Positions 1 through 28,199 of a DNA stretch of 64,000 nucleotides are shown in pieces. The DNA is taken from NCBI GenBank assembly GCA_026075535.2, contig AP026546.1, positions 2,356,001-2,420,000 on the forward strand, in the 5' to 3' direction. Each line of letters begins with the position of its first letter. Positions within the stretch are counted from its first letter, which is position 1. The translations under genes were made by a program, and so were the position numbers. Origin of the DNA: Tricholoma matsutake. Its lineage: Eukaryota; Basidiomycota; Agaricomycetes; Agaricales; Tricholomataceae. A model generated the notes under the pieces. That model was given only the letters and a program-made list of their open reading frames with translations, was not told the origin of the DNA and made no database searches.

Positions 1-665
1 TTTCCCCTTTCCAGATATTTATGACATGTAGTACACATACCAGTACAATCATAATCAATTATAGGGTTCTCAATCTCTTGTTGCTCTTGTGACTCACATG
101 TTTGCTCGATTGAAGTTACTCCACTTCATTTGAGAGGATCAAGACTGCAGTTGACATCTTTTAATGGTATGCTTTCTTTTTTCAAGGTCAATCGACCACA
201 GACTGCACATCCCATCTCTTCAAACCGAGAAGGATGTGTATCACTACAAAACCCACTTATGATCTTGTGAAGAAGCTTGTCTTTTGGTGGAGATGGCAGA
301 AAACTACATGCATTCTGGTTTTTGTAATTATTCTTATTCTGCACCATTTTTGCTTGTTTAAAGGTTGTTGTAGACTTTTTATGCTGATAAAGGTTTGTTT
401 GATATTTTCTAAGTTTCACCCTGGTAAGGCCTTCCTTCCAAGATTTATACAGTTTGTTAACCGGTTTAAAGACAAAGACATTGTCATAACAATATTTCAA
501 ACATAAATGTCCAGTGAGACTATGCAGTATAGCTCCTAATGGTGCTTTGTTTGCCACAAATATACCGTGGATCTTTGCTACAGACTTTGCTTGGCCAAGT
601 GTAAGGTGATTTATAATTGCACCAAGTGGCATACAGCATACCACCATATTTCTGATCAGCCGCAT
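1..665 (-). pseudogene. Helitron-associated protein, N-terminal region (partial, runs off left edge)
   Basis: The minus-strand frame contains CAVCGRL followed about 55 codons later by a CTTCHKYL-type Cys pair. Known family: this pairing of a CxVCGRL motif with a second Cys pair is typical of the region upstream of the Helitron replicase/helicase in agaric genomes. Preceding residues resemble the family's extension, with a Cys-rich stretch (HLCLKYC) and a basic linker. The frame is interrupted by one TGA at 126-128, where relatives usually carry Arg; after it the same frame continues to the window edge, so this is a decayed copy or needs the upstream context. The Rep and helicase domains would lie left of the window and cannot be checked. 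The initiator is unclear because upstream sequence is poorly coding. Confidence 0.6.
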
Positions 666-2263
666 CTATCGTGTTCAAGTAGAGCATGTGAGAAACAAAT
701 TGATACTGGGTACTGTCAGCAATATTTGAAATATGACTGTTTGGTAGAAGATATGATGCCTGCATTCCATATGTAATATGCAATTTTTGGTCACCTATCA
801 GCATTGCATTTGTGGTGGCTGGTGTATCATTTGAAAATATGACTTCATTTTCTATGTTGTATGCTTTGTTATATTGGATGGTGAGAAGTGCATATATAAG
901 ATGATTTTGTAGATGCCAGATAAAAGCCCATGCAACACAATATAATGTACTGGATACATTTGTATCAAGAATGTCCATGGATGCCCGATGTGAAGGTTTG
1001 CATGTTGAATTGCAAACAATATTAATGTAATCATGCTTAAGCATATAGTTTCACATTGTGTGCATAGCAACTATCTGGCAAATATGTGTTGGATTCATAT
1101 GCATTGAGACTAAATGAAGCATTGACATCCAACCAGGCAATATAAACTGAGTTGAATAAAAATATTCCCAAAAAATCAGTCGCCATACAAGCAACTTCAG
1201 ACTCAAGACTCGCAAACGTATGTTCCTTAATGATTTGTTTTCTCTCGAACTATTGTTTGATAAAGCCTCAGACATGTCTGAACAAGTCTGGTAGATTGAC
1301 AAGTGATCATCGATGTTATAATTCCCATTGTTCAAGATCTTCCACAATTCAGAGAGTAGCTCAGTGCTTTTGCCAAGCACAAGAAAAGTGTCATATGTTG
1401 GCAAACTTTCTTTAGAGACATAGTTTCCCATAGTCCAGCTATTCAAAGATTGCATAACAAGCTTTGACTGGCTTGGACTATCAGTAGGAACACCAAAAGA
1501 CCAAGATGAACTAAGTCCATCAAAAGATCCATTACTAATAGCATATGAGAAGACATCTTTCTTTGAGCATGTGCAGACTTACTTGAATGTTAAAGGTATA
1601 GCAGAAGTTAAATGAGCAATACAAAGCCAACAGAAAGTTATGAGTATCTGTAATGACATGTTGACTAGAAGCAAAGTGCAAAGTAATGTGAGTATGCTGA
1701 AACATCAACAAAAAATCATGTGGTTTCAAGATCAAATGTGGACATCTTGCAATGTTTTATCAAAGTCTTATCTCTGTAACTAATGATGAGCACAAAGATG
1801 GCTGAATCTACTGTTGCTAGTACCAGAGTCAGTTCTGAGTGAGCCATTAGCTTTGCTTTGGAATATTTAACAAACTGGTCGCAGGCATGCCATGGATATG
1901 GATGCTTCTCACAAACTACCTCAGATCCCAATCAATGTAGCTTCAACACCACAAGATATAATTCAGGTGAGAATAGTGTCTATGTTAACAATGGCTCATG
2001 TGTGTTAACTTGTATACAAATTCATCGGCGCAATACAAGCCATGGTCATAGTGATTCCAGAGATCAGCCTGGTGGTAATTATCCTGATCATCACAGGGAG
2101 AAGATAAATGGGGTGCAGCTGATATGAAATAATCTGTAACAACAAAGTTACATTGCACAATATTGAATATTACAGTATGTACAACAATTCTCAAGATATT
2201 AACAAAGAATTGTTACAAGACACATTTACAAATGATAACTATGCTGTGCTATTTCTTTACAAG
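666..2263. other. Region without a recognisable gene
   Basis: Only short ORFs are present on both strands (longest minus ones at 520-1044 and 1051-1455). None shows a motif I recognise. Base composition resembles the flanking minus-strand coding regions, so this may be eroded sequence upstream of the Helitron ORF or intron-rich decayed coding sequence. Confidence 0.4.
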
Positions 2264-5234
2264 TCATGTATATTTACAAAGGCCATGCTCTAACATATCA
2301 ATATCATAGCCAATCAACTCCTTCTCCTCTGCAGTGAGATTGGTCTCAAGATAGTTGTGCAAGAATGAAAGTCTGATCTCAACCTCTTGAACAGAAGGAT
2401 TCAGTGATTTGACAATACCAAGGCATTGCAAGCTGAGTATAGCACCTTTATCTACATCAAACATCAGCCTTGCCATCTGTTGGACTGTAGGTTATTCCAC
2501 CACTCCCGCATTCGCTAAATCACCACATATAAGCAGCGCTGTCAGCTCACCAATATTTGGGAAGTTTAGAGGAGGGTTCTTTCCATCATTCTGTTGCTTC
2601 AACTTCTTTTTTCTCCTCCTTTGGATTGTAATCGGCAAAGTTGTCAATGACTTTGGGTTTGATGGGTTGTGAATACAAGAAGCAAAACAAGGACATGATG
2701 CCATTGAACTTATTCGCTGAGAAGTTGGTCCATTTGTGTCGCAAAGACCAGTATTTCTCAATCAACTCCAGCATTCAGTGATAGTTGGCAGGACCATAGG
2801 CATTTGAAATAACAAAATATTTGTCTTCTTTGGTCAAGCCTTCTCCATCCTTGTAAGAAATCCAATCCTCCAAGGTTGCAAACCGACCCCCATGAGTACG
2901 AGCAAATTCAGAACCATAAAAAGCTCCACGATGCAGAGAATATTCCAGAAATCTTCTGGTGTCAAACCATCTTCCAAACCATCATAGACCATATCGATTG
3001 CATGTTTTCAAGTGGGTGCACATTCCCTAAATGGAAGAAAATGGTCGGGTCTATTTGCAACTTTGGACAGCATCTGATCCTTGCTTTTTAGATATGGCTT
3101 TGTTCCATTCTTGACTATAGGCATCAGCATCCGAAGATACTGGAGAAAGACATTGCATTGAGATGAAAGATCATCTGTTGTTGATGATATAGGCAATGAA
3201 GGGGGGGAAGGTGTGACAACAGCTGGAATGCATAATTGTGTAGGCTTTCTTGTAGGCTGTAACATCCACAGGCCATGAAGATCTGTTAAGACATCTAAAG
3301 CCAAGTGCAGTGGAGATGATGAATCCAAGAAACCTGCTGTCTGCAGGCTGATGTGGAGAGTGCTGATGACTTTATCGAAATCTTTAATTGTAAGGTCTCT
3401 TTTACACCACACACCCAAGAGTTTTCCAATAGGATCATTATACAAATGCCACATTGGATCAAGGAGAAGCACAGAGGCTGGAGCTACAGAAAGAATCATA
3501 TCCATAGCCTTGTATTGCAGAATCTGTTTAGGTTCAGAAGGGAAATAGAGCCACAGTTTGAGACAATCGTTAACCACATCAATAGTAAGCACCAACAATG
3601 AAGTGAGGGACCTTGTATTTGAAAATACATGGGGTATCAAGGGAAAGGAGGTAGTTTTCTGAACAAAAGTTGATTGTCTGGCCTGCTCCAATACTGGATG
3701 TGTGATAGTGTTCAATGTCATTTATTAAACGTTGAAGCCAGTTGGACGAGGATGATCATGATGTTGATGAATATGCTGAACTAATCTCCATTTGAAGCCA
3801 GTTTATAATCTTTCATTCTGACGTCATGATAACACTTTGCATATAGCAAAGCTCCACAGCAGTGATGGATCTATAGCATTCCAACCCTCTGAGCTGATCC
3901 CATAGAGCCAGCACTAACTTGGCAGTTTCAGGTTCAGAAGGCCTGTCATTTAATAGCCCCATCATAACAGTGATATTCTGTGTGATCGACCAGGTGTCTT
4001 CAGAAGGCTTTTTATCTGAACGAGCATGTAGGCCCTGGATAAAATCCTTGATGGCATGGAATACAGATATCAAACTAAACATATTGACAAAATATTCTGC
4101 TGGATGTCATTCTTTAATAATGTCAGCTTACTACCAAAGAATGAATGTTTTGTAATACATATGAAGATTAACTTCAATGGCTTCTGATGCATCAACACGA
4201 GTTATTCTTGAATTTGATTCAACAGTATCCTTTCTTGGATCGTAAGGAGAATCATCCATGGACATGTCATCTTCCAAGAGGGAAGATAGCAATGATAATT
4301 CTTCATCACTTCCAAGACCAAAGGAATATGGTACTATTCTAAGCAGGCCCAGAGTAGCATTCTTGACCAACTCGACAACATCAGGTTCCACAGGTGAAAC
4401 CACCAAGTGAGAGCTATCAACCTGCATGCAATCATCATCTTGGGAAGTAACATTTTGAGGAGGTTGGCATGTGTTTTCTTCTTTGAAGTCACTGTCGTTC
4501 AAATTGTCAGTTGGTTGGTAATCATCATCTTTAAATTATAAGGTAAATAATTGTACAAAAACATTTGATTGATATTATATTACACACCCATGTTTGTATC
4601 ACCATCATATCCTTTGTCAATTGGCACATGCAATGAAAGAGGAGGAACAAGTATACCATCAAACACAAGTTTACCCTTTCCTTTTCGCTTCTTTTTGGCC
4701 TTTGAAGATGAGATGGAGAAATTTGGTAGTGGTCTGGGTGGTCTGGGTAGTGGAGGAGCTCCTTTATTTAATAAGGAATGAGTTTCTGGTCAGGAAGAAA
4801 TCATGTTTTTAGCAGAATGTATTATAACCAGAACTGATGAGCACTTACGTCTTCAAGCGACTGGATTATTAAATTCATCGTCTGGAATAAGTCATCAGTG
4901 TTTTGACAGGCAACTTTTCCGAGCATGTCCGAGCTTTTATCTCCTTATATGGTGCGAATTTAATGCAATTTGATGAGATTTTGCAATCTTGCAAGCCACA
5001 TCTAAAAAGCCACAAGTTGGTGAATTTTGCATCACTACAGCAACTCAAATTCAAATCCCAGAGCTCCAAGATTTTTTGTATGGGAAGTGGGCCTGAAACA
5101 GTACATTTCCTACCTTGCAACCTTGCCAGTTTATGGCTTGCTTCAGGCACAGTGAATCCTCTGCAAGCTCGAAAAGTTGGGAAGTTGGCAATCAAAATGT
5201 GCTCTTGCTGATGAATTGTAGATGTCATTGCCAC
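2264..5234 (-). CDS. Unrecognised multi-exon gene, probably decayed
   Basis: Several minus-strand open stretches follow each other in the same direction: 5234-4875, about 4760-4572, 4540-4131, 4082-3813, 3721-3008, about 2774-2590 and 2476-2264. A plausible intron joins the 4.7 kb and 4.5 kb segments: a GTGTGT donor near 4570 and a TTTAAAG acceptor near 4543. The segment at 4.7 kb encodes a Pro-rich stretch and a basic run (KAKKKRKGKGK) that could be a nuclear localisation signal. The 4.5-4.1 kb segment is acidic. The 3.7-3.0 kb segment is hydrophobic and helical in appearance, with no domain I recognise. Other junctions cannot be assigned without transcripts. The 5' end at 5234 is only the first ATG of the open segment. 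I see no transposase triad and do not infer a function. Confidence 0.35.
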
Positions 5235-5565
5235 AGGGCCATCTGTGTTTCAGTTGTCAGTAACCAAAGTTGATATTAAAGTACAACCACTTAACCTATA
5301 TCCATGTCTGGCAGTCTTCTCTCATTCATATCAGGCAGTCATTTGTCAAAGGCATTCATGATTAAATTTAATGCAACTTGGCCAGCTACAGGATAATCAT
5401 TAGATGGCATTGAACTTTTATCTTGCTTAGTGTGTTGTCCTAAGATATAACACATTACCCAATAAAATCAAATTTATAAGTCGTGAATACATACACTTTG
5501 AAGCAATGGTAGACATATTGGTTTTATTCTGACTTGTATGCGCTAGACATTGCTCAACGTATTCC
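5235..5565. other. Intergenic or intronic gap
   Basis: About 330 bases between two minus-strand gene regions. No ORF, repeat or RNA gene was recognised. It is AT-rich and could contain the 3' end of the upstream gene and the promoter of the downstream one. Confidence 0.3.
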
Positions 5566-7584
5566 TTATGTTAAAGGGGATAAATTCATACCCTTTCTCT
5601 TTCTTGAGGGGCCATCCCTCTTAGTGGCTCTTTGAAAAGGCCTGACATCTCTTCCAACCAAATGTGGAATGAACTTTGCACCATCCACTTCCTGTTCCAA
5701 GAACTCCGACACTGCAAATTTTATGGCATCGATTGATCGACGGTCAGCATCCATTATGCTTGGATCCTCTTGTTCTTCTGGTACAGAATGTGTATATCCT
5801 GTGGGGGTGTGCGGCCAATCCTTGGCATGGACACAATTTCCATTCACCTCAGCAGAAAAAGCACTCAGGCAAATCTTTGGATCAATGCGTGCACAGCATT
5901 TGATGGGAAGTTGTCATAGGAAATAATTGTTTATGAGAAGATTTCGACATGAATATTCAAAGAGGTCATGTGTTTCCATCATTACAGGACCATCAGTCAA
6001 CCATGTTGCTTCGTTTGGAGGTTTGATGGGATTGTAAGCATCCTCTCTAAGCAAAAAGCAAAAAGAAATATCAGCATATCAGCAAAAGCATACATGGATT
6101 GTGACTCACAGCACACTCGTCATCTCAGGAGCCAAGGTGAAGATCTTGCCATTTTGGAGCGACCTAGAGCCTGCACGATGATTGGCTGATTGAGAAAGCA
6201 TAGATGCTGGGGGATACATAACAACCATTATTCTGCATGCCGAATCTGCAAGAGGTTTTCCTGGTGGGGATAAAGGTGGAGTGCCTTCATGCTTGCAAAG
6301 GCCACTAAATCCTGTCAGCTTGAACAGATCTAGCTTGATGTAGAGTCCCATGCTCAATAAGTTAAAGCGACCAGATTCATATCCCTTGTCAGCTGGCACA
6401 GCGACGAGTGAAAGCATTGCAGTCTCTGCACCCGGGTCATCCTTCTGGTCAATATGGCCATTTTTCTGACCAAAGTGACCCATGTCTGGGCTCATGTCAG
6501 TCACTATGATAAAAAACCTGCATAAATTTACAATACTAAAAGTATGTAGACAAAGACATACTTTCACATCCATCCCCTTTGGATAGCAGATGCAAGGTTC
6601 AACTGTATGGTGGGGTAAGCACAGTTATCCAAGACACCAATTCGTGGCATGTTGGTGGCCTCTGCAAGCAGTTCAAGATGTTGGACAAATTTGACTGGTG
6701 CATGTTTTTGAATTCCCACCATGCCAACTTTCCCAGTGATCTGAGTTCCATCAGAATCAATTGTAATGTAGTAAATAATTGGGCATACCTTCACAATGTC
6801 ATGGTGGAGCTCTTGATGCTCATCAAGAGTATGATCAGCAACCTTGGCCGAGGCTGTAGGCAATACCAATTGGCGAGAACATTGATGGGAAGGTCCCAGA
6901 GTGTAGCATTGGCTCCCCTTGACACCACTCAGACCATTGCAGTGCTCCCATGTGGTGCCTCCAATCCAAACACCATTTGCCTTAACAGGGCGCCCCAGCT
7001 TTGTGAACGCCTCATTGCCTACTATCAAACATTGGACATGGATCATTTCTTTGAGGACACTAGGATCGTCCGCATGTAACCGGGTACTGAAATAAAGGTT
7101 CACAAGATTGCCAGTGTCTGAACTGATGAAACTTACTAATCACTAACCCACCCACCCAGAACATCCTTTTCAGGATTCGGATCCTGCATGTCCCTTATGA
7201 AGACGAGGTCATCATGATCGATTTCAAATATACCTTGAAATCACTGTAAACGATTACAAGAAAGTTAAAATGCATACACGCACCAAGGTTTGAAACACTG
7301 TCATTTGGGCCCAATGGAACCTCCAAACTGGCCTCGAAAGCTTCAAGAGCTTCTAAACCTTTGACTGATGTATCCTGAATGTACATGAGGATGCGCCCAG
7401 GAGATAACAGGTTGTGATCGTGAACTAACGGATGAGAATCGACCTGGAAGATGTAAGGGAATTGGCCATCCCGATTCACATTGTAAAGAAGAACGCTGTC
7501 TGGCACCACCAGCTCCAGAGGCGCTATTTGCAACATCCTAGGATGGATTGACATGTTGGAAATCACCAATGAACAGAAACACAA
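5566..7584 (-). pseudogene. TET/JBP-like 2-oxoglutarate/Fe(II) dioxygenase, decayed copy
   Basis: The gene reads through exon segments 7584-7255, about 7235-7160, about 7130-6580, about 6530-6106 and about 6045-5566, separated by short GT-AG introns. The N-terminal part has EMIHVQCLIVGNEAF. The central part has a Gly-rich GVWIGGTTWEHCNG and a conserved MPRIGVLDN segment. The third segment holds GHIDQ, matching an HxD iron-binding motif. About 55 residues later comes FSGLCKHEGTPP, and 19 residues after that His an Arg in CRIMVVMYPP. HxD...H...R is the metal- and 2-oxoglutarate-binding layout of this superfamily, and TET/JBP members are expanded in agarics, where tested ones oxidise 5-methylcytosine. 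A TGA near 5921 precedes the basic C-terminal tail (RKRKG), and the splice near 6560 is not clean. Superfamily placement is inference from motifs. Confidence 0.45.
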
Positions 7585-8214
7585 TTGGTCTGCAGTTAAA
7601 CTGCTGATGGACAGTTGCTAGGAAAATGAAAAAAAAAGAATGTAACAATGAGGGGTGATGCCAAACGACCACTGAAAACAACTGGTTTGGAAAGAGCTGT
7701 CTGTAGTTGAACTACTGACAGAGTGTATCCAGAAAACTGAGGTGCAAGTGCAGATGGCGAGGAGTAGATTATGATGGCAAGAAGAAAGGGCATGGATAAA
7801 AGCATGTGACAACATCATAAAAGTCTATTTTTAAACACATGTAACTACATCAAGTAAGTACCAATAACAAGGCTGTTAATAAAGGTTCAAGTGCATAAGT
7901 TAACAATGTTCCTTGCAGTTGAACTGCAAGGAATAGTTTGAAGCCAATGCAGATGATCCAACACAGGAAGGCCGCCAACCAGGAGTTGAACCTTTCAGAA
8001 TGTCAACAGCAAGAGGAGGCAGCAACCGTCTGCATGAACGGTTGGTCTTCCTGAACAGACTTTTCTTGCCATTCAATGGCGAGGAATATTAAAGGCAAAA
8101 AGAAAACAAGAAGAAGTCGAAAGTGAACAGGGTAAAACATGGTTCACTGAACACCCAGATTAGAATAGGGACACTGGTGATGAACAAATGTTACCAACCG
8201 TTCAACAGCAAGCA

Positions 8215-8693
8215 TCAATGACAAGCAAGTTTGTTGGAGCAGGACAAGAGCACCTTGAAATTGATGCCAAGTGAAGCCAACAAGAAAACAAATAAATGTT
8301 CCTTGGGGTTCAACCGCAAGGAACAAGAGATCGAGAAATATTTGAAGATATGGGTACATCAGGATGGAAGGAAAGTTACCTGCTGTTCAACAGCAGATAA
8401 CAACAAAAAGATTCAATATTCTGGTAATACTCATATGAAATAAACACTAACCTCAATGGCAACGATGACAGGTGTGAAGGTTACCAACTGTTAAATGGCA
8501 GGCAACAATGACAAGCAGGATTGTTGGAGCAGGCAAAAGTGCCTTGAAATCAATGCCAAGTGAAACCAACAAGAAAACAAATAAACATTCCTTGTGGTTC
8601 AACTGCAAGGAACAAGAGACTGAGAAAGATTTGAAGATATGGGTACATCAGGATGGAAGGAATGTTACCCATTGTTCAACAGCAGATATAATA
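8215..8693 (+). repeat. Direct duplication inside the palindrome array
   Basis: The segment from TGACAAGCA at about 8219 to the CAGATA at about 8400 recurs at about 8511-8692, offset by about 291 bases. Shared stretches include ACCAACAAGAAAACAAATAA-like and AAGATATGGGTACATCAGGA. It shows that the array grew partly by local duplication. Confidence 0.7.
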
Positions 8694-8878
8694 ATAAAAC
8701 CAGTATTTTCTAGCTGTTAACTTGCCAAAAAATTGAAAATGACAAGATTCAGGCACCAACAAAAAAAAAATAGGAAGGCCGGTTCACAAAGCTTATTCTC
8801 CTGAAGCATGAAAGGATTGATTCTGGTAAGTTCGACCTAGCAGAACAAGTATAAATGAAAAAATGGATGGAGATTGAG

Positions 8879-8945
8879 GTCACATGCACCAAATATTGAC
8901 ATCTCTCCCCCCCCCCGAGAGATGTTGATATTTGGTGCATGTGAC
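8879..8945. repeat. 29-bp-arm hairpin with poly-C loop
   Basis: Left arm GTCACATGCACCAAATATTG... and right arm ...TATTTGGTGCATGTGAC pair over 29 bp with two mismatches. The loop is a run of about 9 C. Flanks match those of the hairpin at 9966-10032. Confidence 0.9.
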
Positions 8946-9965
8946 TTTTTTAGAAATGCAAAAAGTAAAATGCAAAGGAAACATGAATATTCCATGCAAT
9001 TGAACTGCAGGAACATAACATGGCTTGAACATTCTCCACCACACTGCACCTATAGTAAGTAAAATATGGCAACTACAAAACATTCTCAACAGGGAACAAC
9101 AGAATGAAACTGGTTCAAAGACACTGGAACGCTGATACTGAATCATCCATCATTCTCCCTTGAGCATGAACGCTCTCCGCAGTTCAACTGCAGGGAACAA
9201 TGTACTGAGAAAGATCTGGAATGCGGGTAAGGGTCAAACATTATCCACCATTCAATGGTAGGTAACTATGAACTTCCATACGACTGATGGTGTGATTGCT
9301 AGAGCAGGACGACGTTCTTTGAACTTGAAAGCCTGGAAAGTATAACTTGGCAACAACAAAACATCCTCAACAAGCGAATGTTCCCTGCAGTTGAACTGCA
9401 GGGAACAACATGACAAAAACATTTCGAAGATATGGGGAAGCTGGCACTGACATCCGTTGTTCAACAGAAAGAAACTATGATGAAGCAAGCAAAAAAACTA
9501 AGCTAAAACCAGGTGGTTGAACTACACCCAACTAACTCGCAATGCCGATGGAAAGACAAATTCAAAAAGAAAATAGCGTACACATTGCTCAACATCACCC
9601 AACATGCACGCATCATGGTCTACTGTGGGCACAAAGGTAGGTAAATTCTGCTAAGCTCATGTTGAATGATTCCAATGACTTCAACAACATTCTCTGCACT
9701 TCAACTGCAGGGAACAACCAAAAGGTAGAAAGACAGCCATCATTTCCTAGCTGTTGAACAGTGCGGAAGAGGTTATAGTCAAAGAAACCAGGTATTTCTA
9801 GCAGTAGAATTGGCAAAAAATTGAAATTGTCCAGATGCTAGTGCCAAAGAATAGAAATAGCATGGTTTCTCTGTAAAGAGTAAACTCCTGAAGCAGGAGA
9901 AAATTGTTTATGTTAAGTTCAATATAGCAGAAGACATACAAAAGACAAAATGCCTGGAGATAGAA

Positions 9966-10032
9966 GTCACGTGCACCAAATATTGACATCTCTCGGGGGG
10001 GGGGAGAGATGTCAATATTTGGCACATGTGAC
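9966..10032. repeat. 29-bp-arm hairpin with poly-G loop
   Basis: Same hairpin arms as 8879-8945, and homologous flanks on both sides (upstream CTGAAGCA..., downstream TTTAGAAATGCAAAA), but the loop is a run of about 9 G instead of C. Confidence 0.9.
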
Positions 10033-10119
10033 CTATTTAGAAATGCAAAAGCAGAAAACACAATGGGAAAACAATCATTCCATGCAATTGAACTGCTGGG
10101 AATAAGGCAACACAGCATG

Positions 10120-10859
10120 TGTTAAGAGTGAAGCCCTAACCACTTGATCTAGTCGATGTCATTTGACGAGGTGCTTCCTTGACAAGTCGTTCGGCACTAG
10201 TCTTACTCAGAGCATCTGATGTAAGATGGATAGCGCACTCTAGCAGGCCTTCTGCATAGAGTTGTTCAGGTTCATGCACTAAGGGGCTTCCTTAGTGGTT
10301 TCAAGTAAGCTCGCAAGTTCACAAGTTAAAGCTGTAGGTTGCCTAGATCTAAACTAAGGACATCCCTACTACAAGTTGCAGTACTTATACTAGAAGGGAG
10401 GTCCCTATCGTCCAATCGGAATGGTAGATGCATATCAAGTAACAATAGAAACAATCAGCCTCATGCCTTGCATGAGGCATCCGATGTCACAGAGTGCTGT
10501 GGTGCAGCATGTCAGGGAACAATAAGAGATAAGCCTCATGCCTAGCATGAGGCGTCCGATGTCACGGATCCAATGTCAAGGATCCAATGTCAATCATGAG
10601 AGTCCGACGTCATGGACCTCATGTCAAGGGGCTGTTGTATCACAGCATGTGTGGGAATGGTTTCAGGTGCATGGAGTCATCATGCATCAAGGGTGCCTTC
10701 CATGGGAAGGGGATTGAATGTATGTTGTTGGCATGCATTGTGTGTGTGTGTGGTGTCAAGGGCATGCCCTAAGCATGAATCAGGAGTCTCCTGTCTGGAG
10801 GGGATTGTCGGGTATGTCAGGTCAGTCAGGTTCCATGAGTTACAAGGAAAATTGTAACA
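10120..10859 (-). repeat. Gypsy 1 3' LTR
   Basis: Begins TGTTAAGAGTGAAGCC and ends AAAATTGTAACA. It matches 19557-20048 plus 33223-33427 throughout, with differences mostly C/T and G/A at CpG. It contains short palindromes around GCCTCATGCCTAGCATGAGGC-like sequence, present more often here than in the other LTR, which explains the length difference. Confidence 0.9.
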
Positions 10860-11338
10860 TTACCCCCTCGTTATGGTCAAAAGTTCCACACTTTGACATA
10901 AATCTTTGTTCCTCCTCCGGGGTCAATTGGTTGTGGTGTGGATATGTCATGGCATTGGCATCTGGGTGTGGGATGGAGGGACTGTTCATGTCCGAGCCTA
11001 GACCGTGATCAGGTTCTTTTTGTTCTATACTGCCCCTAGCAGTGGTGTCAAGGAGTCAGTGATGTCGTCAAAAGGGGAGGGGTCTGTAGGGTCTGTGCAG
11101 TATCAAGGGTAATCATCATAGTTTTACATCTTTGCGGATGCTTGGTAGTTTAACATCTCTGCAGATGGTCAGTAGTTTAATGTCTTTGCAGACAATCGAT
11201 AGTTTAATGTCTTTGCGGACGATCGGTAGTTTAATGTCTTTGCAGACATTTGGTAGTTTTCTAGTTGTGCCCAGCAGTCTGAGGCATCGCGGTGTGGGGG
11301 TGTCATTCAGAACGCAGCAGCATCCCTAGTTCTCCATG

Positions 11339-11740
11339 TCATCCAAATAAGAGCTGCCTTGCCAGCTCGAATCCACTTTCTTCATTGTAGTGGGTGTTCC
11401 ACTGAAGGTCTTTCCACAGTGATGGGTTAATCCCCACCAGTGGTCTTCTGCCTGGGGTTAGGCCATTGTGGTCAAGGTAGAATTCTTCAGGGAAATAGTT
11501 GTCGTTGTCTAACTCTCCTTTGAAGCACCACTCTTCAAATTGTGCTTTTACCCAGGTCAAATCCATCTTTGTGCTCCTCCGCATATAGAGGCAACATCTC
11601 GGGCAAGTCGAGGATACTCTTTTTATCCAGTTGTCTCTGTTTATCCAGAATGTGATTCTGTGCGGGCATTCCCAAGAGGGTTGCCCCAGCAGTCTGTTCG
11701 TTCTTGGTGACTGGTCAATGACTCGTCGTCCAGTTGCCAT
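11339..11740 (-). pseudogene. Gypsy 1 accessory ORF downstream of pol
   Basis: A 133-codon ORF between the chromodomain and the 3' LTR on the element's coding strand. Visible features are a Cys pair (CPRCCLYMRR), Trp-rich segments (TWVKAQFEEWCF) and LTPGRRPLVGI. I know of similar ORFs after the integrase in agaric gypsy elements but no established function. It lacks envelope-like features (no signal peptide, no membrane segment). It is the longest uninterrupted ORF in the 3' part of the element. The initiator at 11740 may be internal, because upstream sequence is low complexity (poly-A/G around 11768-11790). Confidence 0.5.
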
Positions 11741-11904
11741 GTTCTTCTCATATTCATTCTTTTATTGAAAAAAAAAAAGGGGGGGGGGGCGGGGTTGAAC
11801 ATGAAGGGCATCAACGTTCAGTGGGTCAATCATCGTTTGGGGGGTATCAGGGGTGTCGTTTGGCTGGGGTTTGGTTCAGATAGTGGGGGTTTCTTGGGTT
11901 CTCA

Positions 11905-13085
11905 TCAGAGGTGGTACCTCTTCTTATATGCCATCAGGATCTCGGGGGCATTCTTCAAGTTTGATTTGGGTTCCCATGTGTTTTCGGATGTTGGGTAGTC
12001 AACTCATTTCACAAGGTAACGGCATGTCTTGCCATGCTTCTTGTGTGCGATGATCGCTTCCACTTTGTATTTGTTTTCTCCTTCTACAAGGTCGGGTGGT
12101 GGAGTCAGGAAGTTTCACCCATGAGTGTCGTTCTCATGGTGTTGTGTGAGTAAAGCCGCATGGAAGACCAGGTGGATCTTCCATCTCAGCAGCAGTTTCA
12201 GTCGGTATGTCGTTCTTGACAGGGCATCTTCAATTGTGAAGGGCCCTTCTTGTTTTCGTGCCAATTTTCTTGTCGGGTAGCCAATCTTCAGGTTCTTGGA
12301 GTCGAGCCATACTTGCTCTCCAACCTTGAATGGTTTGTATCGCCCTTTCATTTGGGTGGCCATAGCCTGTCTGGCCAGTTCATGTGCGGCAAGAGCTTCC
12401 CTTCTCGCAGAGAGAAGTTCTTGGATTCTCTGTTTGGCAGCCGGCACGTTCGTCTTTTCATAAGGGGTGGGGATAGCATGTGGTTGATATCCCATCATCA
12501 AGTAAAATGGCAAATGTTTTACTGCGGAGTGCATCTTCTGGTTATGTGCGAATTCTGCTGTTGGGAGATAAAGCTCCCAATCTTCTGGTTTGTTCGAACA
12601 GAACATGTGGAGGTAAACCTCTAGCTCTTAGTTTACTCGCTCCATTTCTCCATCGGTCTGAGGGTGATAGGTGGTGCTCATGGATAGCTTGATTCCAAGC
12701 AGTTGTCCGAGTTCTTGGAAGAGTTTGGATGCAAATTGAGGGTCTCTGTCTGAGATGATTCTTCTGGGGAGTCCAAATCTTGTGTATACATGGCACAGGT
12801 AGAGGTCTGCGGCGCCAAGTGCATCAATCATCTTTGCGCAAGGGATAAAAATTACCCCCTTCATAAGACCATGGTCTACCATGACCATGATTGAGTCAAA
12901 TCCGTTTATTACTGGCAGGTCCATAATGAAATCTGTCGTTACCAGCTCAAATGGTCTGCTGGCATTGGATGATATTGGTGTCAGGGGTGGGGTCATCGGG
13001 TGGGTGTTGATCTTCATTTGCTGGCACTTTGTGCAGCCTTCAACGTATTTCTTTATGAAGTTGGCCATTCCTGGCCACCAGTAGT
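11905..13085 (-). pseudogene. Gypsy 1 integrase and C-terminal chromodomain
   Basis: The integrase zinc-binding part ends in CTKCQQMK near 13010. The catalytic core shows [16 protein letters not shown] and [13 protein letters not shown], so the D, D and E positions are present. Downstream (12606-12115) comes the family's C-terminal region with KPEDWELYLPTAEFAHN and a GPFTIEDALS-type fold. The last part (about 12110-11905) reads as a chromodomain: KVEAIIAHKKHGKTCRYLVK, then a TGA at 12004-12006 where the conserved Trp of the aromatic cage should be, then VDYPTSENTWEP. Frames shift between 12628 and 12606. Chromodomains direct such elements to modified chromatin. Stops and frame changes make it inactive. 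Confidence 0.8.
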
Positions 13086-13089
13086 CTCG

Positions 13090-13915
13090 TCAGATCAGTT
13101 CGATTGTTTGCCATTGTCCAGGGTGCCCTGTCATGATGCTGTCATGGTATTTCTGTATGATTGCTTGGCGGAGGGTTTCGTCCTGTGGCACATAGCACCT
13201 GGCTTTGAAAAAGAGCAGGCCATCTTCGAATTTCCAGTCCTCCAATGCAGACTTGATTGGGGGAGTTCCATTGTTCTTCAGGGCTCGTAAAGCATCATTT
13301 ATGAGGTCGTCCTTCATTATTGCTGAGACCAGGGCTCCCTGGAGTTCAGCGTCGATTGTTTTCACAAATAGTTCATCGGTGAGGATGGTCTTGTCCTCAT
13401 TATTGGTGTCTTCTTTGGCTATATGATCTGCTCTCCTCAATAGGGCATCAGATTGTACCATCTGTGATCCTGGTACATGTTGTAGCTTCAGGTTTAATTG
13501 TGACAGGTAGATGCTCCATCTAGCCTGTTGTCGGTTCAGTTTCTGTGCCTGACGGAAGTATGTCAGGTTCTTGTGATCGGACAGTACCGTCACAGAAAAC
13601 GGTGTCCCCTGTAGGTAGTGTCTCTATGTCTCCAGCGCTCGGATTACTCCCAGTAGTTCTCTGTCGTATATCTTGTAATTTCTTTCGGCTTTGTTGAAAG
13701 AATGTGAGATGTAACTGCAAAGGTGCCAGTCTCCATTGGCATCCTGTTGTCTGAGTACTGTGCCTGTCGCAAATTTCGAGGCATCAGATTCCACCATGAA
13801 TGGCTTTGTTGCATCTGGCATCAGCAGTACTGGGGCTTCATTGAATTTCCTTTTCAGTGCATTGAACGACTGCTGGCAGTCGTTCATCCATTCAAATTTT
13901 TGGTTCTTCTTCATC
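13090..13915 (-). pseudogene. Gypsy 1 RNase H
   Basis: The minus strand shows [47 protein letters not shown] and QARWSIYLSQ, which are the RNase H motifs of Ty3/gypsy pol, followed by the linker to the integrase zinc finger. Two frame breaks lie near 13600. The coding sequence is cut upstream at 13916-13923 by a hAT-like element. Joining across that element restores the reading [14 protein letters not shown] expected between reverse transcriptase and RNase H. Confidence 0.8.
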
Positions 13916-14122
13916 AAATTGTTCAGTAATTTACACTCCTCCACCTATTCTGATCGGACTCACCGGAGTCCAGTGGATTCCATTGCATTCCAGTGGATTC
14001 CGGTTATTCCAACCAGATTCTGGTTACTCCAGATGCTCAACTTAGAGTATATACCCTAATGGATAGTCAAATTTCAAGTCTTAAGTTGTCAAAGTGCCTA
14101 CAAAATATATTTGTGCAGAGTA

Positions 14123-14201
14123 AGAATTGAACTCAAGACATCTTGATTAGAGTGATCACATGACAAACCAAACATGTGTGCTTAACCAGTTGAGCCACAG
14201 G
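14123..14201 (-). other. tRNA-like segment (left, element 1)
   Basis: On the minus strand the A-box-like TGGCTCAACTGGTTAAGCAC is followed about 50 bases later by the B-box-like GAGTTCAATTC. Spacing fits a tRNA-derived pol III promoter. No stable cloverleaf with a full acceptor stem is apparent, so it is not called a tRNA gene. It points out toward the left terminus. Confidence 0.6.
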
Positions 14202-15622
14202 AAAATTATTAGTTAGTAATATAATGTTTATTCATGACACTCTAATTTTTTTCAAAGTAGTTAAGATCAAATTTTTTTAATTAACCACATCCCTCACATT
14301 GAATGCGAGGGAGTGGGCATGATTGTGATTATATACATAAACAAAAATCCTCCCTCTCACAAGATGTGAGAGGGAGTTTTATTTATATACATAAAAAGCT
14401 AACCCCTTGTGCTGAACACCAGGGGGGAGGTAAAAATGATGAAAAAAATCCCTCCCCCAGGCAAAACAGGGGAGGGGGGGCACAATACTAATAAATAGTT
14501 AAAAGTACAAAAAACATCCCTCCCCACATGAAGTGCGGGGGAGGGGGAGGGGACACAACCCCACTGTTGTCTGTCCTTCCACCAATGATCCACCCCATGA
14601 GCAGTTGCTCATGAGGCTGGAGGTGGGTGGCTTGTCGTTGTTGTCGTTCCACCCATGATCCACCCCACGAGCAGTTGCTCATGAGGCTGGGGGTGGGTGG
14701 TGTGTCGTCGTTGTTGCGCCTGGGCATCGTTCCACCCACAATCCACCCCACAAGCAGTTGCTCGTGAGGCTGGGGGTGGGTGGTGTGTCGTTGGCCTTGT
14801 CGTCGTTGTCCGTCATCATTGGCAGCCATGCTTTGCATTCTGGGGGGTTCTGGTGCTGGTAGACGGTGGCATCATTGTTGTTGTTGCCTGCACACACTCA
14901 CGATCCACCCTACAAGCAGGGGCTCGCAGGCATGGGGTGGGTGTGTTGGCTCGTTTGCAGGTGGTGGTGTCGTTACTAGTAGATTATAACCTAGAAAACT
15001 AAAAAAACGAGTTAGTTAGTTTATAAAAACAAAAGCAAATGAAAAAAACTCACATAGGGCCCATGTTGGCTCGTTTGCGGGTGGTGGCATCGTTACTAGT
15101 AGATTATAACCTAGAAAACTAAAAAAATGAGTTAGTTAGTTTATTAAAACAAAAACCAAATGAAAAAAACTTACATAGGGCCCAAACGACGTGATCTGCG
15201 TCGTTTGGGCCTGTGTTGGCTCGTTTGCAAGTGGTGGTATCGTTGCCAGTAGATTATAACCTAGAAAGCTAAAAAAAAGGTTAGTTAGTTTATAAAAACA
15301 AAAAGCAAATGAAAAAAAACATACTTAGGCCCCAAACGATGCGATCTGCATTGTTTGAGCCCGCATTCCATCCAGTCGGCTCATTTGAAGGTGGTGGTGA
15401 TGGTGGGAGTGGGCATGGGAATGGTGGTGGCGGGTGCACATGCAGTGGTGGTGGTAGAGTGGAGAGGAGGAGGAGGCGGCCTTGATGATGGTGGTGGTGG
15501 TTGTGAGCTGGCAGTCATGTGTCACGTGTCATGCAATATGCATGTGTGCATATTCTGTTAATGGCTGTAACTATGCACCTTGGTTGGGTAATAAAAGTAT
15601 TAGATGTTTGTAGTTGAATAAT

Positions 15623-15700
15623 GACCTGGTAGCTCAGTGGTTAAGTGTGCTGTTATGTGTGCAGACCCAAGGTCAAGTGTTCAATTCTTGTTGCACATCG
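15623..15700 (+). other. tRNA-like segment (right, element 1)
   Basis: A-box-like TAGCTCAGTGGTTAAG at 15630-15645 and B-box-like GTGTTCAATTC at 15677-15687. It points toward the right terminus, so it faces away from the left tRNA-like segment. Confidence 0.6.
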
Positions 15701-15975
15701 AAATTTTATTTGGGAAAGCACATGCATTCCGGTTATTCTGGTTATGCTAGTGCCATGCATCTGGTTGATCCAACTATTCCAGGTAAAAATGAGTCCGGGT
15801 AGATTCCAGGGATTCCAGAGGTAAAATTGACCCCCCAGTCCGACCAGAATTATGAATTGTGAGAAAAATATATGTAAATGGAATTGACCGGAATTCTGGA
15901 AATTCCGATCAGAATGGGCATTCTGACTGGAATCCGACTGGAATAGGTGGAGGAGTGTAATGTACTCAAATCGTT

Positions 15976-17300
15976 CAGCAGTCTAGCCAGATCCGCAAAG
16001 TGTCTGATGAATCTTCAATAGAAGCTCCCAAATCCTAGGAAGGATCTTACATCCTTCACTGTCTTTGGCATGGGCCAGTCCTTGATCACAGCCAGCTTTG
16101 TGTTGTCCATTGCAAGTTCATTGGGCCTGATGATCATGCCCAAGAAGTCAACTTCTTGCACATTGAACTTGCACTTCTCTATTTTCAGGTAGAGATCGCA
16201 TTGTCATAGTTGTTCGAGGACCCTTTTGGTCCTTGTCCTGTGTTCTTCTTCCATCTTCGAGAAGATCAGGATGTCGTCCATATAGATGATGAGCCATCCT
16301 TCATCTAGCATGTCTTGGAAGAGATCATTCATCATGGCCTGGAATGTCACCGGTGAGTTGCACAGCCCAAAGAACATCACCATTGGCTCGAATAGCCCTC
16401 GGTTAGTCTTGAATGCTGCCTTCCACTCGTCTCCTTTCTTTATCCATACGTTATGGTATCCCCATTGAATGTTGAGTTTCGTGAAAAATCTTGCTCCTTT
16501 CAGCTTGTCCAAGAGGTCTCCGATCAGCAGTAGAGGGTAGTTGTTCCAGATCATTCCTTCATTCAGATAGCGATAGTCTTGGCAGGGTTGTAGAGCATCA
16601 GAGTCCTTCTTTGACATGAAGAAGAATGGGGATGCCATGGGTGATTTCGATGGTTGGATGTATCCTTTCTCCAGGTTTTCATCTAGAAACTCGTTGAGTT
16701 TCTCTTGTTCTTTTGGGGTCAGTGGGTAGACTTTGCAATCCTTTGGTACAAAGCCTTCTTTTAGGTCGATCGCATGATCCCACGGTCTCGATTCCGGGGA
16801 TCGTTCAGATGCAGCTTTCTTGAATACCTGTCTGTACTTCTGGTATTCCGGTGGCAGTAAGTCATCCAGGGTTTGTTGGCTAGTCTCCTTCCCTCCTCTT
16901 GTTCATGCGCTAGTCATTGAGATATGGATGTCTTTGCTCTAATCCATATGTCCGAGTTGAGTAGGTACCATGGGGAGCCCTTGCTCTTTGTAAGCCTGTT
17001 GATTGTGTTTGTTTTTTGGATGTATTTGTAGCTCGGCTCTCAAAGTTCCTCCATCAGGGGCAGTTCTATATCTGGTCCAAATAGGCCAATGACCGGTTCG
17101 CCTTGTACATATGCGATCAATACCGAGTCGTCTTTGATTGCATCTCATTTGGGGATCTGGTTCATTGCTCGTATTTCCATGCCTGTGTCTGCCAATAGTT
17201 CTTGGTTGGGTACCTCTTCGATCTTTACTCGAGGGGGGGTCTCCCTGGGTATCGGTACTCTGGTGTCAGTAGTACCATAATCTGGGGTTCCATAATCGTG
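15976..17300 (-). pseudogene. Gypsy 1 reverse transcriptase
   Basis: The ORF at 16638-16204 shows the palm motifs: TKLNIQWGY (motif A, normally TKLD), [14 protein letters not shown] (motif B) and [10 protein letters not shown] (motif C). The motif A Asp is replaced by Asn through GAC to AAC, and the following Arg is Gln through CGA to CAA. Upstream, about 17148-16650, the frame is broken but reads toward the protease. Downstream, [12 protein letters not shown] and [18 protein letters not shown] sequence continues to 15976, where the hAT-like element interrupts it. Loss of the motif A Asp removes a metal ligand, so the enzyme would be dead even without the stops. Confidence 0.8.
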
Positions 17301-17329
17301 TATTGGGGTAGCCTCCTGACAAGGGTCTT

Positions 17330-17880
17330 TTGTCCTGTTTTGTAGTGCCGTTTTCGAGTTTCATTTGCCAGTGCTTTCCTCCCCTGTGGAGGTCAGCAAG
17401 TCTTTTTTCTTCCACAAGATCCATCACGTCTTGTCACATTTGTTGTATTTGCCCTTTTCCAGTTGCTTCTTCTTCTGGTTTTCTTGGGTCTTGGCAACAG
17501 CACATCATGCTGCTTCGAGGTTTCTGGTTTCTCTAGGAGTGCTGCTGCTCCTGGTCTTTGCGACAGCTATCTGGGCAGAATTCAGTTCTTTGGCTTTTCT
17601 TTTGGAAAGCCTTTCCTTCATCTTTGCCATGGCTAGTCATGCTCAGGCAAGGTTTCTCTCCTTTTCTTTGGAGAGTCTTTCTCTTGTTTTTGCCATGGCC
17701 AATCTGGCTTGGGCAAGGCTCTTCTCTTTTTCTTCAGAGAGCCTCTGTCTTGTCTTGGCCACGATGCGTTGAATTCATGCCATCTTGTCATTTGGTGCCT
17801 CCCTTCCAGTGTCAACCCTTGGGAGGTTTAGGGTGTTTGGGAGGGCCCATTCAGCTCTTCTTGTCTTCTCCAAGATTTGT
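17330..17880 (-). pseudogene. Gypsy 1 charged coiled-coil linker
   Basis: Between protease and reverse transcriptase the minus strand encodes repeats of the form AMAKTRERLSKEKE, at least three tandem units of about 26 residues, with stops between some. It is strongly charged and likely helical. I know of no catalytic role; it probably links protease and polymerase in the polyprotein. Confidence 0.5.
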
Positions 17881-17906
17881 TTGATCTGAGCCCATCGTTC
17901 TTCATC

Positions 17907-18275
17907 TCAGAACTCAAAAGTTCCCTTCTTCCAGTCGGTGATTGGGTTTATCTCCCACAGCCATGGCAGACCCAGGATTACTGATTCTTTGCCTAGTCTG
18001 GCAACTAGGTATTCCATCGGGTAGCTCCTCCCATTGATGTGGAGCCTCCCTTTCATGCATCTGGTGATCGTTCCCTGCCTATTCAGGGTTCCATCTACAT
18101 TTGCGGCCCGGATGGTGCAGCCTAAGGGATATGTCCTGATCCCTTCTCGTTCAACAAATTTCGAGTCAATAAAAACTCCTCCTGCTCCAGAGTTGAGGAG
18201 CACGTTCATTGCGACGTCTTTCCCATTGTCTGACTCAGCTACCCAAATAGACAGGCACATAGATTGTCTATTCAT
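17907..18275 (-). pseudogene. Gypsy 1 aspartic protease
   Basis: Minus-strand ORF with the retropepsin pattern: the hydrophobic approach VLLNSGAGGVFID, a central GTITRCMKGRLHIN and the C-terminal VILGLPWLWEINPITDW (ILG motif). The active-site triplet DSG reads NSG, from GAC to AAC, so the catalytic Asp is lost. The flanking sequence otherwise looks intact, which suggests decay rather than divergence. Confidence 0.8.
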
Positions 18276-18340
18276 GGTAGCTAAGAGTACAGATCCTAGG
18301 GAGACTACAGCGGTGACTGGCGTCGTATCAGGCTGCTGTT

Positions 18341-19240
18341 CTAAAAACCTGATTCCTCCCTGAGGTTGAGGGCTCGTTCCTTTTCTTCTTTGTCTAGTTC
18401 ATCCAGCATCGTGCGGATCTTCTGGTAGGTGTCCACCCCAGTCTTTTTCTGGGTGAAGCGGTTTTGGTAGGGAGGGGGTGCTGACCCCATCTGGGTGGGG
18501 TTCTTTCCATCCCTGTGGTCGGACAATCAGTGTCCTGGTTGGTGGCAGATGAAACACAATCTCTTTTGGAGGTGTTCCACTCATTCTTGGTTTGTCAGTT
18601 GGTTGATGTCAAGAGAGGGCTGTCCTTTCTTTGTTGTTTTGTTTGTCTTCTGGTTCTGCCTGGTCTTTCCCAGGATTGCCATGGCCCGTCTCCATTGGCC
18701 TTCATATTTCAAAGCTGCCTTTATCCAGCCTTCGAGAGTGTTGGGTATTGTTTTTATTGTGTGTATTTTTTTTAGTAATTTGGGGTGTAGTTTGTTTATG
18801 AAGTATTTGATTATGGTTGTATCTTCGGTGATTCCCATCCTGTCTTTCAGGATGTGGAAGTTCGCCACATATTCTTTGAGGTTCCCTGAACCTTGTTTGA
18901 GATTTTTAATCTCTGTCTTTGCCGTTCCGGCGTCATCAATCAGTGAGAAGGCTTCTAGGACCTTCTGTCTGAAGTCTGCGTATTCTCTGAGTCCCTCAGA
19001 TTGGTGTTGGTTGACAAATGCCTGCACCCAGGCAGCTGCTGTCCCTCCATTCATGAAGGACAGTGTGAAGATAATCTTCTTGTTGTTTGTGTCATAGACC
19101 TGGTCATTGATTCGCAGGTATAGGTCTATCTCCTGCAGGAACTTGGCGGTCTTGGTCTGCTCTCCTGAGAAGTCTGTGGGTGATCGGATTCGAATGTCCT
19201 TTATGGACATCATGGGTGTGGTTGTGGCAGGTTCAGACAT
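18341..19240 (-). pseudogene. Gypsy 1 Gag
   Basis: ORF from 19240 with a Met start and SPTDFSGEQTKTAKFLQEID, then a helical Gag core (AAAWVQAFVNQ, GNLKEYVANFHILKDRMG). After a stop near 18581, another frame has CFICHQPGH followed by a stop and LSDH, matching a zinc knuckle (CX2CX4HX4C) whose last Cys reads His. The Ty3-type Gag forms the particle shell. The region 19241-19556 up to the LTR holds more broken Gag-like leader sequence. Confidence 0.75.
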
Positions 19241-19556
19241 CTGGTTATAGAGGTCGTCGATTTTGTCTGTTAGGAAGTGGGTAGATGTTTTGGGTGGGGG
19301 TGTGTGTGGTTGTTCGAAGTCTTCGTCAGTGAGGAAATCTCCTCTTTGTCTGTCGGTTGATCTGTAGAACCAACGCTGTGCTGGGGTCGAGTAACGGACT
19401 AGTCTTCCATTGTATCGGTACCAAGATGAACCTGGCTGTGGTTCCGCTTCTCTTGGTGGTCAGTCTGGGGTTTGTCTAGACCCAGGTCATTGTGGTGTGT
19501 TTCGAGATGTATTGCCTACACCTAGGTAGGTGGGCTAGCAGATAGTTTAGATCTTA

Positions 19557-20048
19557 TGTTAAGAGCAAAGCCTTAACCACTTGATCTAGTCAATGTCATT
19601 TGATGAGGTGCTTCCTCGACAAGTCGTTTGGCACTACTCTTACTCGGAGCATCCAATGTAAGATGGATAGTGCACTCTAGCAGGCCTTCTGCATAGAGTC
19701 GTTTGGGTTCACACACTAAGGGGCTTCCTTAGTGGTTTCGAGTAAGTTCACAAGTTCACAAGTTAAAGCTGTAGATTGCCTAGATCTAAACTAAGGACAT
19801 CCCTACTACAAGTTGCAGTACTTATACTAGAAGGGAGGTCCCTATCGTCCAATCGGAATGGTAGATGCATATCAAGTAACAATAGAAACAATAAGCCTCA
19901 TGCCTAGCATGAGGCGTCCGATGTCACGGATCCAATGTCAAGGATCCAATGTCAAGGACATGCTGCGGCACAGCATGTCAATCGTGAGAGTCCGATGTCG
20001 TGGACCTCATGTCAAGGGGCTGTTGTATCACAGCATGTGTGGGAACAG
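19557..20048 (-). repeat. Gypsy 1 5' LTR, part A
   Basis: Matches the first two thirds of 10120-10859, starting TGTTAAGAGC. It stops at 20048 in GTGTGGGAACAG, where the intact LTR reads GTGTGGGAATGGTTTCAGG. The remainder resumes at 33223, beyond gypsy element 2. Confidence 0.9.
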
Positions 20049-21237: not shown

Positions 21238-21278
21238 TTTTTGGAGCCCACTGTGAGGGTTTCTGAATCATTTCATCC

Positions 21279-22263: not shown

Positions 22264-22265
22264 CG

Positions 22266-23348: not shown

Positions 23349-23350
23349 CC

Positions 23351-28195: not shown

Positions 28196-28199
28196 CAAA

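What the first reader, a model, noticed from the sequence alone, without database searches (positions are those of the whole stretch)
7600..10119. Array of palindromes whose arms covary around a fixed GTT(G/C)AAC centre
Seen: about 20 or more units here and at 33428-34850. Arms read GCAG..CTGC, GTAG..CTAC, GCCA..TGGC, ACCA..TGGT or GCTG..CAGC, so changes in one arm are matched in the other while the TTGAA/TTCAA centre stays. Inference: the palindrome itself is kept, by hairpin-templated repair, selection as a binding site or RNA stem, or repeated insertion of palindromic units. I know of no described repeat of this kind.
Basis: partly seen in the sequence, partly recalled or inferred. Interest (0 to 1): 0.82.

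Follow-up and report, generated by a model that had tools for sequence, protein, structure and literature searches.

The report
Hairpin-palindrome array inside mushroom Helitron
A giant jumping gene in the matsutake mushroom carries about two dozen short mirror-image DNA units whose two halves change together, as if a folded hairpin shape, rather than the exact letters, is what has been kept.

Summary
The genome is Tricholoma matsutake TMA_r1.1 (total and five chromosome lengths match); window = chr9:2,356,001-2,420,000. A model finds 24 palindromes in the window, all in the two stretches named. The stretches are ONE array cut by a 23.3-kb LTR-retroelement. The array belongs to a >20-kb dispersed element with at least 10 other copies; copy L026 encodes Helitron Rep and PIF1 helicase, in broken frames, and its 3' end resembles Helitron2/Helentron ends. 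A smaller Helitron2-like family carries related palindromes.

The unit is about 25-27 bp: near-fixed loop TTSAA, GC and outer TT/AA, with variable but paired positions. In threshold-free genome-wide patterns, arm position 4 pairs in 85-90% (shuffled 31-47%), positions 8-10 in 79-90% (38-59%); position 7 pairs at chance. Between subfamilies palindromes are 85-90% identical, other array DNA 73-76%. So pairing is kept, probably by selection on a DNA hairpin or cruciform; pure arm-to-arm repair should not spare position 7. What reads the hairpins is not shown. My literature searches found no description of such an array in Helitrons.

The parts
1..10119 (-). Helitron2-like element, window copy, 3' side of the element (a matching 3' end lies 6.4 kb left of the window at chr9:2,349,580)
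   Evidence: 93-95% collinear with the best other copies; 3' end search
33428..35308 (-). Helitron2-like element resumed, second half of the palindrome array
   Evidence: L013 6474-8355 = window 33430-35308, 93%
38200..39066 (-). Helitron2-like element resumed (carries + strand ORFs of unknown function)
   Evidence: L013 8353-9219 = window 38200-39066; ORFs
43071..44062 (-). Helitron2-like element resumed
   Evidence: L028 8550-9543 = window 43070-44062
44761..47490 (-). Helitron2-like element resumed; 5' end of the element not located
   Evidence: L032 599-3329 = window 44761-47490
10120..33427 (.). LTR-retroelement insertion (23.3 kb, TGTTAAG...TGTAACA ends) that splits the array; not part of it
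   Evidence: Ty3 gag inside
7696..7722 (.). palindrome unit 1
7908..7934 (.). palindrome unit 2 (10/10 paired; centre G here, C in the four other B1 copies aligned)
8061..8087 (.). palindrome unit 3
8190..8216 (.). palindrome unit 4 (weak score)
8298..8324 (.). palindrome unit 5
8375..8401 (.). palindrome unit 6
8480..8506 (.). palindrome unit 7 (weak score)
8587..8613 (.). palindrome unit 8
8664..8690 (.). palindrome unit 9 (weak score)
8989..9014 (.). palindrome unit 10
9172..9198 (.). palindrome unit 11
9240..9266 (.). palindrome unit 12
9380..9406 (.). palindrome unit 13 (10/10 paired)
9689..9715 (.). palindrome unit 14
9743..9769 (.). palindrome unit 15
10077..10103 (.). palindrome unit 16
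33483..33509 (.). palindrome unit 17
33717..33743 (.). palindrome unit 18
33887..33913 (.). palindrome unit 19
33999..34025 (.). palindrome unit 20
34059..34085 (.). palindrome unit 21
34204..34230 (.). palindrome unit 22
34329..34355 (.). palindrome unit 23
34485..34511 (.). palindrome unit 24 (weak score)
6567..7139 (-). element ORF next to the array, related to T. matsutake hypothetical proteins, no Pfam match at E<=1

Best explanation
SHOWN: the array is an integral part of a >20-kb Helitron-type rolling-circle transposon of T. matsutake whose 3' end is of the Helitron2/Helentron kind; it consists of 25-27-bp imperfect palindromes (TT-C-Y-C-W-G-C-N-G-TTSAA-C-N'-G-C-W-G-R-G-AA as the commonest form) conserved above their surroundings; Watson-Crick matching of the arms is kept at variable positions while position 7 is free. 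INFERRED: the units work as folded DNA hairpins (in the single-stranded form that rolling-circle transposition would create, or as cruciforms), read mainly by the near-invariant loop and by the paired stem largely irrespective of stem letters, by a protein of the element (Rep or an unknown accessory protein). The likely role is docking or control of transposition/replication, as the 3' hairpin does in Helraiser.
For: Rep PF14214 E=5e-31 and PIF1 PF05970 E=4e-23 on one strand of copy L026. A shared end: 13 of the 18 other long hits (177-227 bp) start at query position 7 or 8, the rest at 4, 5, 9, 10 and 40. 3' sub-terminal repeat TAAGGACTCATA + hairpin GCCAGTACTGGC + CCCAAG|T in L026 and L027, mirrored by 5' T|TATGAGTCCTTATG in the small family. 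Threshold-free pairing at d4, d8, d9, d10. Doubly changed cells 101 v 34.4 (sd 4.8) shuffled, 0/500 (rows pre-selected for pairing). Orthologous compensated A:T to T:A changes (GCAG/CTGC v GCTG/CAGC). Palindrome identity 0.85-0.90 v 0.73-0.76 controls in 9 of 9 (non-independent) pairs of copies; within B1 68 of 600 palindrome columns vary v 840 of 4119 others. As ssDNA, 8 of 10 units tested beat all 200 shuffles. In Helraiser a swapped stem keeps ~90% activity, a changed loop does not (PMC4778049, passages).
Against: No clear G.T over A.C excess among mismatches (28:26; 53:44), so no sign of a particular strand being folded (decay of dead copies could mask it). Units lie in both orientations, and the link of position 7 to the centre base is weaker in the genome-wide list (TT 12, AA 9 of 66 centre-G strings). 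Positions 5 and 6, inside the stem, hardly covary. The array is internal, not terminal, in the big element, whose 5' end I could not find. Under the conditional null, window-only positions 8-10 are weak (P 0.06, 0.58, 0.09). Two of 10 window units do not beat all shuffles as ssDNA hairpins. No binding, RNA or transposition data.
Confidence: 0.45

Rival explanations
1. RNA hairpins: the array is transcribed (e.g. as leader or lncRNA of the element's left-hand gene) and the stem-loops are recognised or processed as RNA.
For: Covariation with a near-fixed loop is what RNA stem-loops show; the array adjoins minus-strand ORFs.
Against: Wobble pairs not clearly favoured on a strand (a weak test, see report); units in both orientations, and a 1.0-1.35-kb part of the array is inverted between subfamilies with units retained; no Rfam match at gathering scores.
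Confidence: 0.2
2. Dyad-symmetric double-stranded operator sites for a dimeric DNA-binding protein of the element or host; no folding.
For: Strong invariants about a helical turn apart (TTSAA centre, TT/AA at +-11,12), both orientations, sequence conservation including of imperfect units.
Against: A homodimer would not require complementary letters at free positions: d4 uses all four pairs yet is paired 77-90% depending on the subset counted.
Confidence: 0.2
3. No function: mutational homogenisation of palindrome arms by template switching or hairpin repair, plus array growth by segmental duplication.
For: G/C centres swap G<->C more than background: 27 of 135 B1-B2 comparisons v 4.6%, 10 of 163 within B1 v 0.7%; a poly-C/poly-G hairpin loop is flipped at one orthologous site; internal duplications exist.
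Against: Would not spare position 7 (28% paired) nor keep the same imperfect units identical over flanks only 0.58-0.71 identical. The within-B1 swaps are only two sites, and within B2 0 of 77 centres swap.
Confidence: 0.15

Closest known systems
Helitron2 / Helentron (non-canonical Helitrons; Fusarium FoHeli)
   Same: Rep + PIF1 helicase, asymmetric (sub)terminal inverted repeats, 3' hairpin, T next to the ends seen (PMC5148889, PMC4067079: passages)
   Different: >20 kb, several unknown ORFs, and an internal array of palindromes (16-29 detected per copy) not mentioned in the passages I saw
Helitron 3' terminator hairpin (Helraiser, PMC4778049: passages)
   Same: palindrome whose loop matters more than stem letters
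   Different: single and near the 3' end there; here an array, internal (big element) or 5'-proximal (small family)
Bacterial REP/BIME with TnpA-REP (PMC8266576: passages)
   Same: clustered imperfect palindromes, both orientations, stem irregularity, linked to an HUH-type transposase (HUH class of Helitron Rep: recalled)
   Different: eukaryote; no GTAG foot seen; no evidence that units move singly
HINE/DINE-1 central satellite arrays (PMC4067079, PMC7492417: passages)
   Same: repeat array inside a Helentron-type element
   Different: those are tandem repeats; here palindromes dispersed among mostly unrelated spacers
Integron attC sites (recalled)
   Same: structure kept, letters free, unpaired bases kept
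   Different: bacterial, integrase-read; no kinship claimed

Membership tests
Helitron (superfamily) | Rep (Helitron_like_N) domain plus PIF1-type helicase in the element | tested here: met
   PF14214 5.3e-31, PF05970 3.7e-23 in L026 (copy at C4), same strand, in separate open stretches; not scanned in the window copy, where that part lies outside
Helitron (superfamily) | precise shared end, no long target duplication | tested here: inconclusive
   sharp common 3' end and sharp 5' end in the small family; empty sites not compared
Helitron1 (canonical) | 5'-TC / CTRR-3' ends between A and T | tested here: not met
   3' end ...CCCAAG in L026, L027, L018; small family 5' end TATGAGTCC
Helitron2 / Helentron | asymmetric (sub)terminal inverted repeat, 3' copy some 20-60 bp inside the end, followed by hairpin | tested here: inconclusive
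   3' half met for the big element (L026, L027: repeat, hairpin, 28 nt to the end) and 5' half met for palindrome-carrying small copies; both ends together seen only in L018 about 706-2697, which has no palindrome units
Helentron proper | endonuclease domain | not tested
   the ORFs of L026 scanned gave none; not searched further
Bacterial REP/BIME | GTAG foot beside the palindrome | tested here: not met
   no conserved flank outside +-13 in 24 unique strongly oriented units
Bacterial REP/BIME | dissemination as single units by TnpA-REP | not tested
   only a look by eye for units present/absent between copies

The most novel reading that the evidence does not exclude
A eukaryotic rolling-circle transposon carries a long array of structure-selected DNA hairpins with a shared loop and a tolerated mismatch: a eukaryotic counterpart of REP/BIME or attC-type folded-DNA sites, read by an HUH Rep or partner protein and serving as internal docking, priming or termination points.
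Probability: 0.33. Interest if true: 0.8.

Novelty: new variant of a known kind. Interest (0 to 1): 0.6.

Why it matters
Helitrons move through poorly understood single-stranded steps. A natural array of some two dozen hairpin-forming units per copy, in two diverged subfamilies and a small relative, is a ready comparative data set on which letters and which pairs such an element needs. It shows base-pair covariation in DNA units with no known RNA, so it makes the question 'is folded DNA, not sequence, selected in eukaryotic transposons?' testable.

Tried and rejected
Rejected: two independent clusters (one array). Chance palindromes. Protein-coding repeat: 14 element ORF pieces of the window gave no Pfam match at the curated cut-off, and the one compared with solved structures only a non-significant hit. 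Known RNA family: no Rfam match at gathering scores. 'All covariation is CpG decay': considered after and put too strongly in my note; counted, 27 of 68 variable palindrome columns are transitions at a visible CpG, 24 other transitions, 17 transversions or multiple; it does not explain the A:T/T:A and C:G/G:C classes at d4. Array as 5' end of the big element: a 5'-like end in L029 looked right at first but sits at the edge of a stretch absent from L030 and L031, so it is probably a separate insertion. Exact pattern in prokaryotes and viruses: 0 stretches in viral contigs, 1 in genome contigs. Homologues: 6 and 3 proteins, T. matsutake or unnamed. Literature: 8 searches; none of the listed titles or passages seen describes such an array; one search returned only papers on its common words. 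No structure prediction was run. One search failed in part (files not found), repeated properly. The protein alignment led nowhere.

Dropped rows: one search thinned 110 unique 27-mers to 57 (at least 3 differences); 2 of the 57 were left out of the alignment (one not of the core type, one with a poly-A side). One search listed 100 of 134 hits; 6 background strings were removed in one sub-count and small-family strings in another (all versions printed; d4 0.85, 0.83, 0.77). Searches used 3 of the 5 B1 copies.

Full report
WHERE WE ARE. The window lies in a 161,040,721-base, 13-contig genome at C9:2,356,001-2,420,000. Total length and the lengths of chromosomes 7, 8, 9, 11 and 13 equal those printed for Tricholoma matsutake TMA_r1.1 (PMC10211490, passages; contig lengths), so the organism is the matsutake mushroom.

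OBSERVATION. Palindromes of 10-bp arms around a 5-base centre are 7-8 fold above dinucleotide shuffles in both stretches at >=8 of 10 pairs, and almost five times as dense as in the rest of the window. A covariance model finds 24 units in the 64 kb, all between 7696-10103 and 33483-34511. Other fetched parts of the element (L026, L027, L032) have none at E<=0.01.

ONE ARRAY, ONE ELEMENT. Copies L006, L012, L013 and L028 run across the junction of window 10119 and 33428. The stretch between, 10120-33427, has TGTTAAG...TGTAACA ends and a Ty3 gag ORF inside. Further insertions lie at 35309-38199, 39067-43070 and 44063-44760. Flank searches find the element in at least 10 other places (counted by eye), in two subfamilies: B1 (88-95% to the window) and B2 (L029-L031; 76-90% to the window's flank, 92-98% among themselves). 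The 69 hits of the strict palindrome pattern fall in or beside these places (compared by eye). A few looser hits lie elsewhere (one in L009, one at C4:5988256).

HELITRON. Copy L026 carries on the minus strand Helitron_like_N/Rep (5.3e-31), DUF6570 (6.6e-23) and PIF1 (3.7e-23), in separate open stretches; in the window copy this part would lie left of the window. The 3' end is TAAGGACTCATA, hairpin GCCAGTACTGGC, then CCCAAG with T outside (L026, L027). In one search it is shared by 19 long hits including the query; one is at chr9:2,349,580, 6.4 kb left of the window. A smaller family (S) starts T|TATGAGTCCTTATGTTTACATAAG at mostly different host sites, the mirror of that 3' repeat, and carries palindromes about 250-800 bp inside that end. 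L018, about 706-2697, looks like a complete 2.0-kb relative with both ends and no palindrome units. These are features given for Helitron2/Helentrons in PMC5148889 and PMC4067079 (passages). No palindrome-carrying copy was seen with both ends. The 5' end of the big element was not found; homology between window and L032 continues to window 47490.

THE UNIT. In 173 units from eight copies (score >=7, TTSAA required; 104 unique 25-mers), T at +-11 is 99% conserved and GC at 5-6 is 80-94%. Position 4 uses all four pairs and is paired 88%; position 7 only 28%; position 13 still pairs in 61%. Nothing further out is conserved in 24 strongly oriented units. T:T at position 7 goes with centre G (46 v 9; unique 17 v 4), A:A with centre C (19 v 9; unique 11 v 4), which suggests an orientation; both orientations occur. 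In the genome-wide centre-G list the link is weaker (TT 12, AA 9 of 66).

COVARIATION TESTS. Permuting right arms in single copies: total pairs 243 v mean 189 (max 210) in L031, 183 v 145 (165) in L028, 141 v 111 (130) in the window. Because units were chosen for pairing, a null conditioned on >=7 pairs was run: d4 P = 0.0024, 0.0002, 0.0002; d9 P < 0.0001, 0.029, 0.58; d7 lower than expected (P 0.0006, 0.12, 0.08) for L031, L028, window. A threshold-free test came from genome-wide patterns with N at arm positions: 69 and 134 hits (100 of the 134 listed) against 0 and 1 for the reversed pattern. Unique strings (21 and 66): d4 0.90 and 0.85 paired (shuffled 0.47, 0.31), d8 0.81 (0.55), d9 0.90 and 0.79 (0.59, 0.42), d10 0.82 (0.38); d5 and d6 weak (0.61 v 0.53, 0.74 v 0.69); d7 0.29 and 0.36 (0.41, 0.32). 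Leaving out background strings d4 is 0.83 (0.33), leaving out small-family strings too 0.77 (0.30). The structure counter gives 101 doubly changed cells v 34.4. Related strings are not independent, so P values are indicative.

CONSERVATION. Between B1 and B2, 10-15 of 21-24 palindromes could be aligned per pair; identity 0.851-0.896 v 0.731-0.756 for other 25-mers of the array, P <= 0.0012 in the nine pairs made from three B1 and three B2 copies. Imperfect units stay identical, e.g. TTCCTTGCAGTTGAACTGCTAGGAA with flanks 0.58-0.63 (L030, L031). At one unit GCAG/CTGC (GCAA in L028) is GCTG/CAGC in all three B2 copies; at another GCTG/CAGC faces GCAG/CTGC in L031 but GCAG/CCAC in L029 and L030. 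Within B1, 68 of 600 palindrome columns vary against 840 of 4119 other columns (the others include poorly aligned stretches).

SHALLOW VARIATION. Of those 68 columns 51 are transitions, 27 with a CpG visible in some copy. Decay of a CpG-rich palindrome will leave matched arms by chance in part of the cases, so classes such as GCAG/CTGC v GTGG/CCAC do not prove compensation alone. For the same reason the even G.T:A.C ratio (28:26) cannot separate RNA from DNA firmly.

FLIPS. G/C centres swap in 27 of 135 B1-B2 comparisons (background 4.6%; 3 transitions) and 10 of 163 within B1 (0.7%; two sites only; no transitions), but 0 of 77 within B2 (0.3%); of 15 B1-B2 comparisons with an A/T centre 12 are transitions. 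Longer hairpins with poly-C or poly-G loops lie in 7 of 8 copies scanned; at one orthologous site the loop is G10 in the window (9995) and C10 in L013 (6351). Hairpin-mediated inversion is a plausible minor process.

MECHANISM. Near-fixed loop, fixed GC, free but paired stem letters and one exempt position fit selection on a folded hairpin. The rolling-circle mode (established for Helitrons; not shown here) would expose single strands; in Helraiser the 3' hairpin tolerates a foreign stem but not a changed loop (passages). I therefore prefer folded DNA read by an element protein, with RNA stem-loops and plain operators as rivals. What the units do is inferred, not shown.

KNOWN OR NEW. The carrier is a known kind. 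I saw no description of an internal palindrome array with covarying arms in Helitrons in the searches named, which cover only an open-access library.

Noticed in passing
window 8877-8947 and 9964-10034: Two 29-bp-arm hairpins with C9-10 and G9-10 loops; similar ones in 7 of 8 copies scanned and, with other arms, in the small family (L007). Loop orientation differs at one orthologous site.
   Followed up: partly
window 10120-33427: 23.3-kb insertion with LTR-like ends and many internal tandem repeats, Ty3 gag at 18581-19240, possible imperfect 5-bp target duplication GCATG/GTGTG.
   Followed up: partly
window 39067-43070: About 4-kb insertion with inverted ends TAGTGCTTGAA...TTCAAGCACTA and an 8-bp AACCTATG repeat at both sides, hAT- or KDZ-like (family recalled).
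   Followed up: no
window 44063-44760: 698-bp TGTCACG...TTAACA insertion flanked by GCAAC twice, a likely solo LTR.
   Followed up: no
window 24499-24948: 20.5 copies of a 22-bp tandem repeat at 97% matches.
   Followed up: no
window ~47487: Homology with L032 stops at a CCTAACCCTAACC telomere-like stretch.
   Followed up: no
L018 about 706-2697: Apparently complete 2.0-kb Helitron2-like element with both ends and no palindrome units.
   Followed up: partly
L005 5317-5343: A Thermoflexales bacterium contig has one unit-like palindrome, the only exact hit in genome contigs, probably chance.
   Followed up: no
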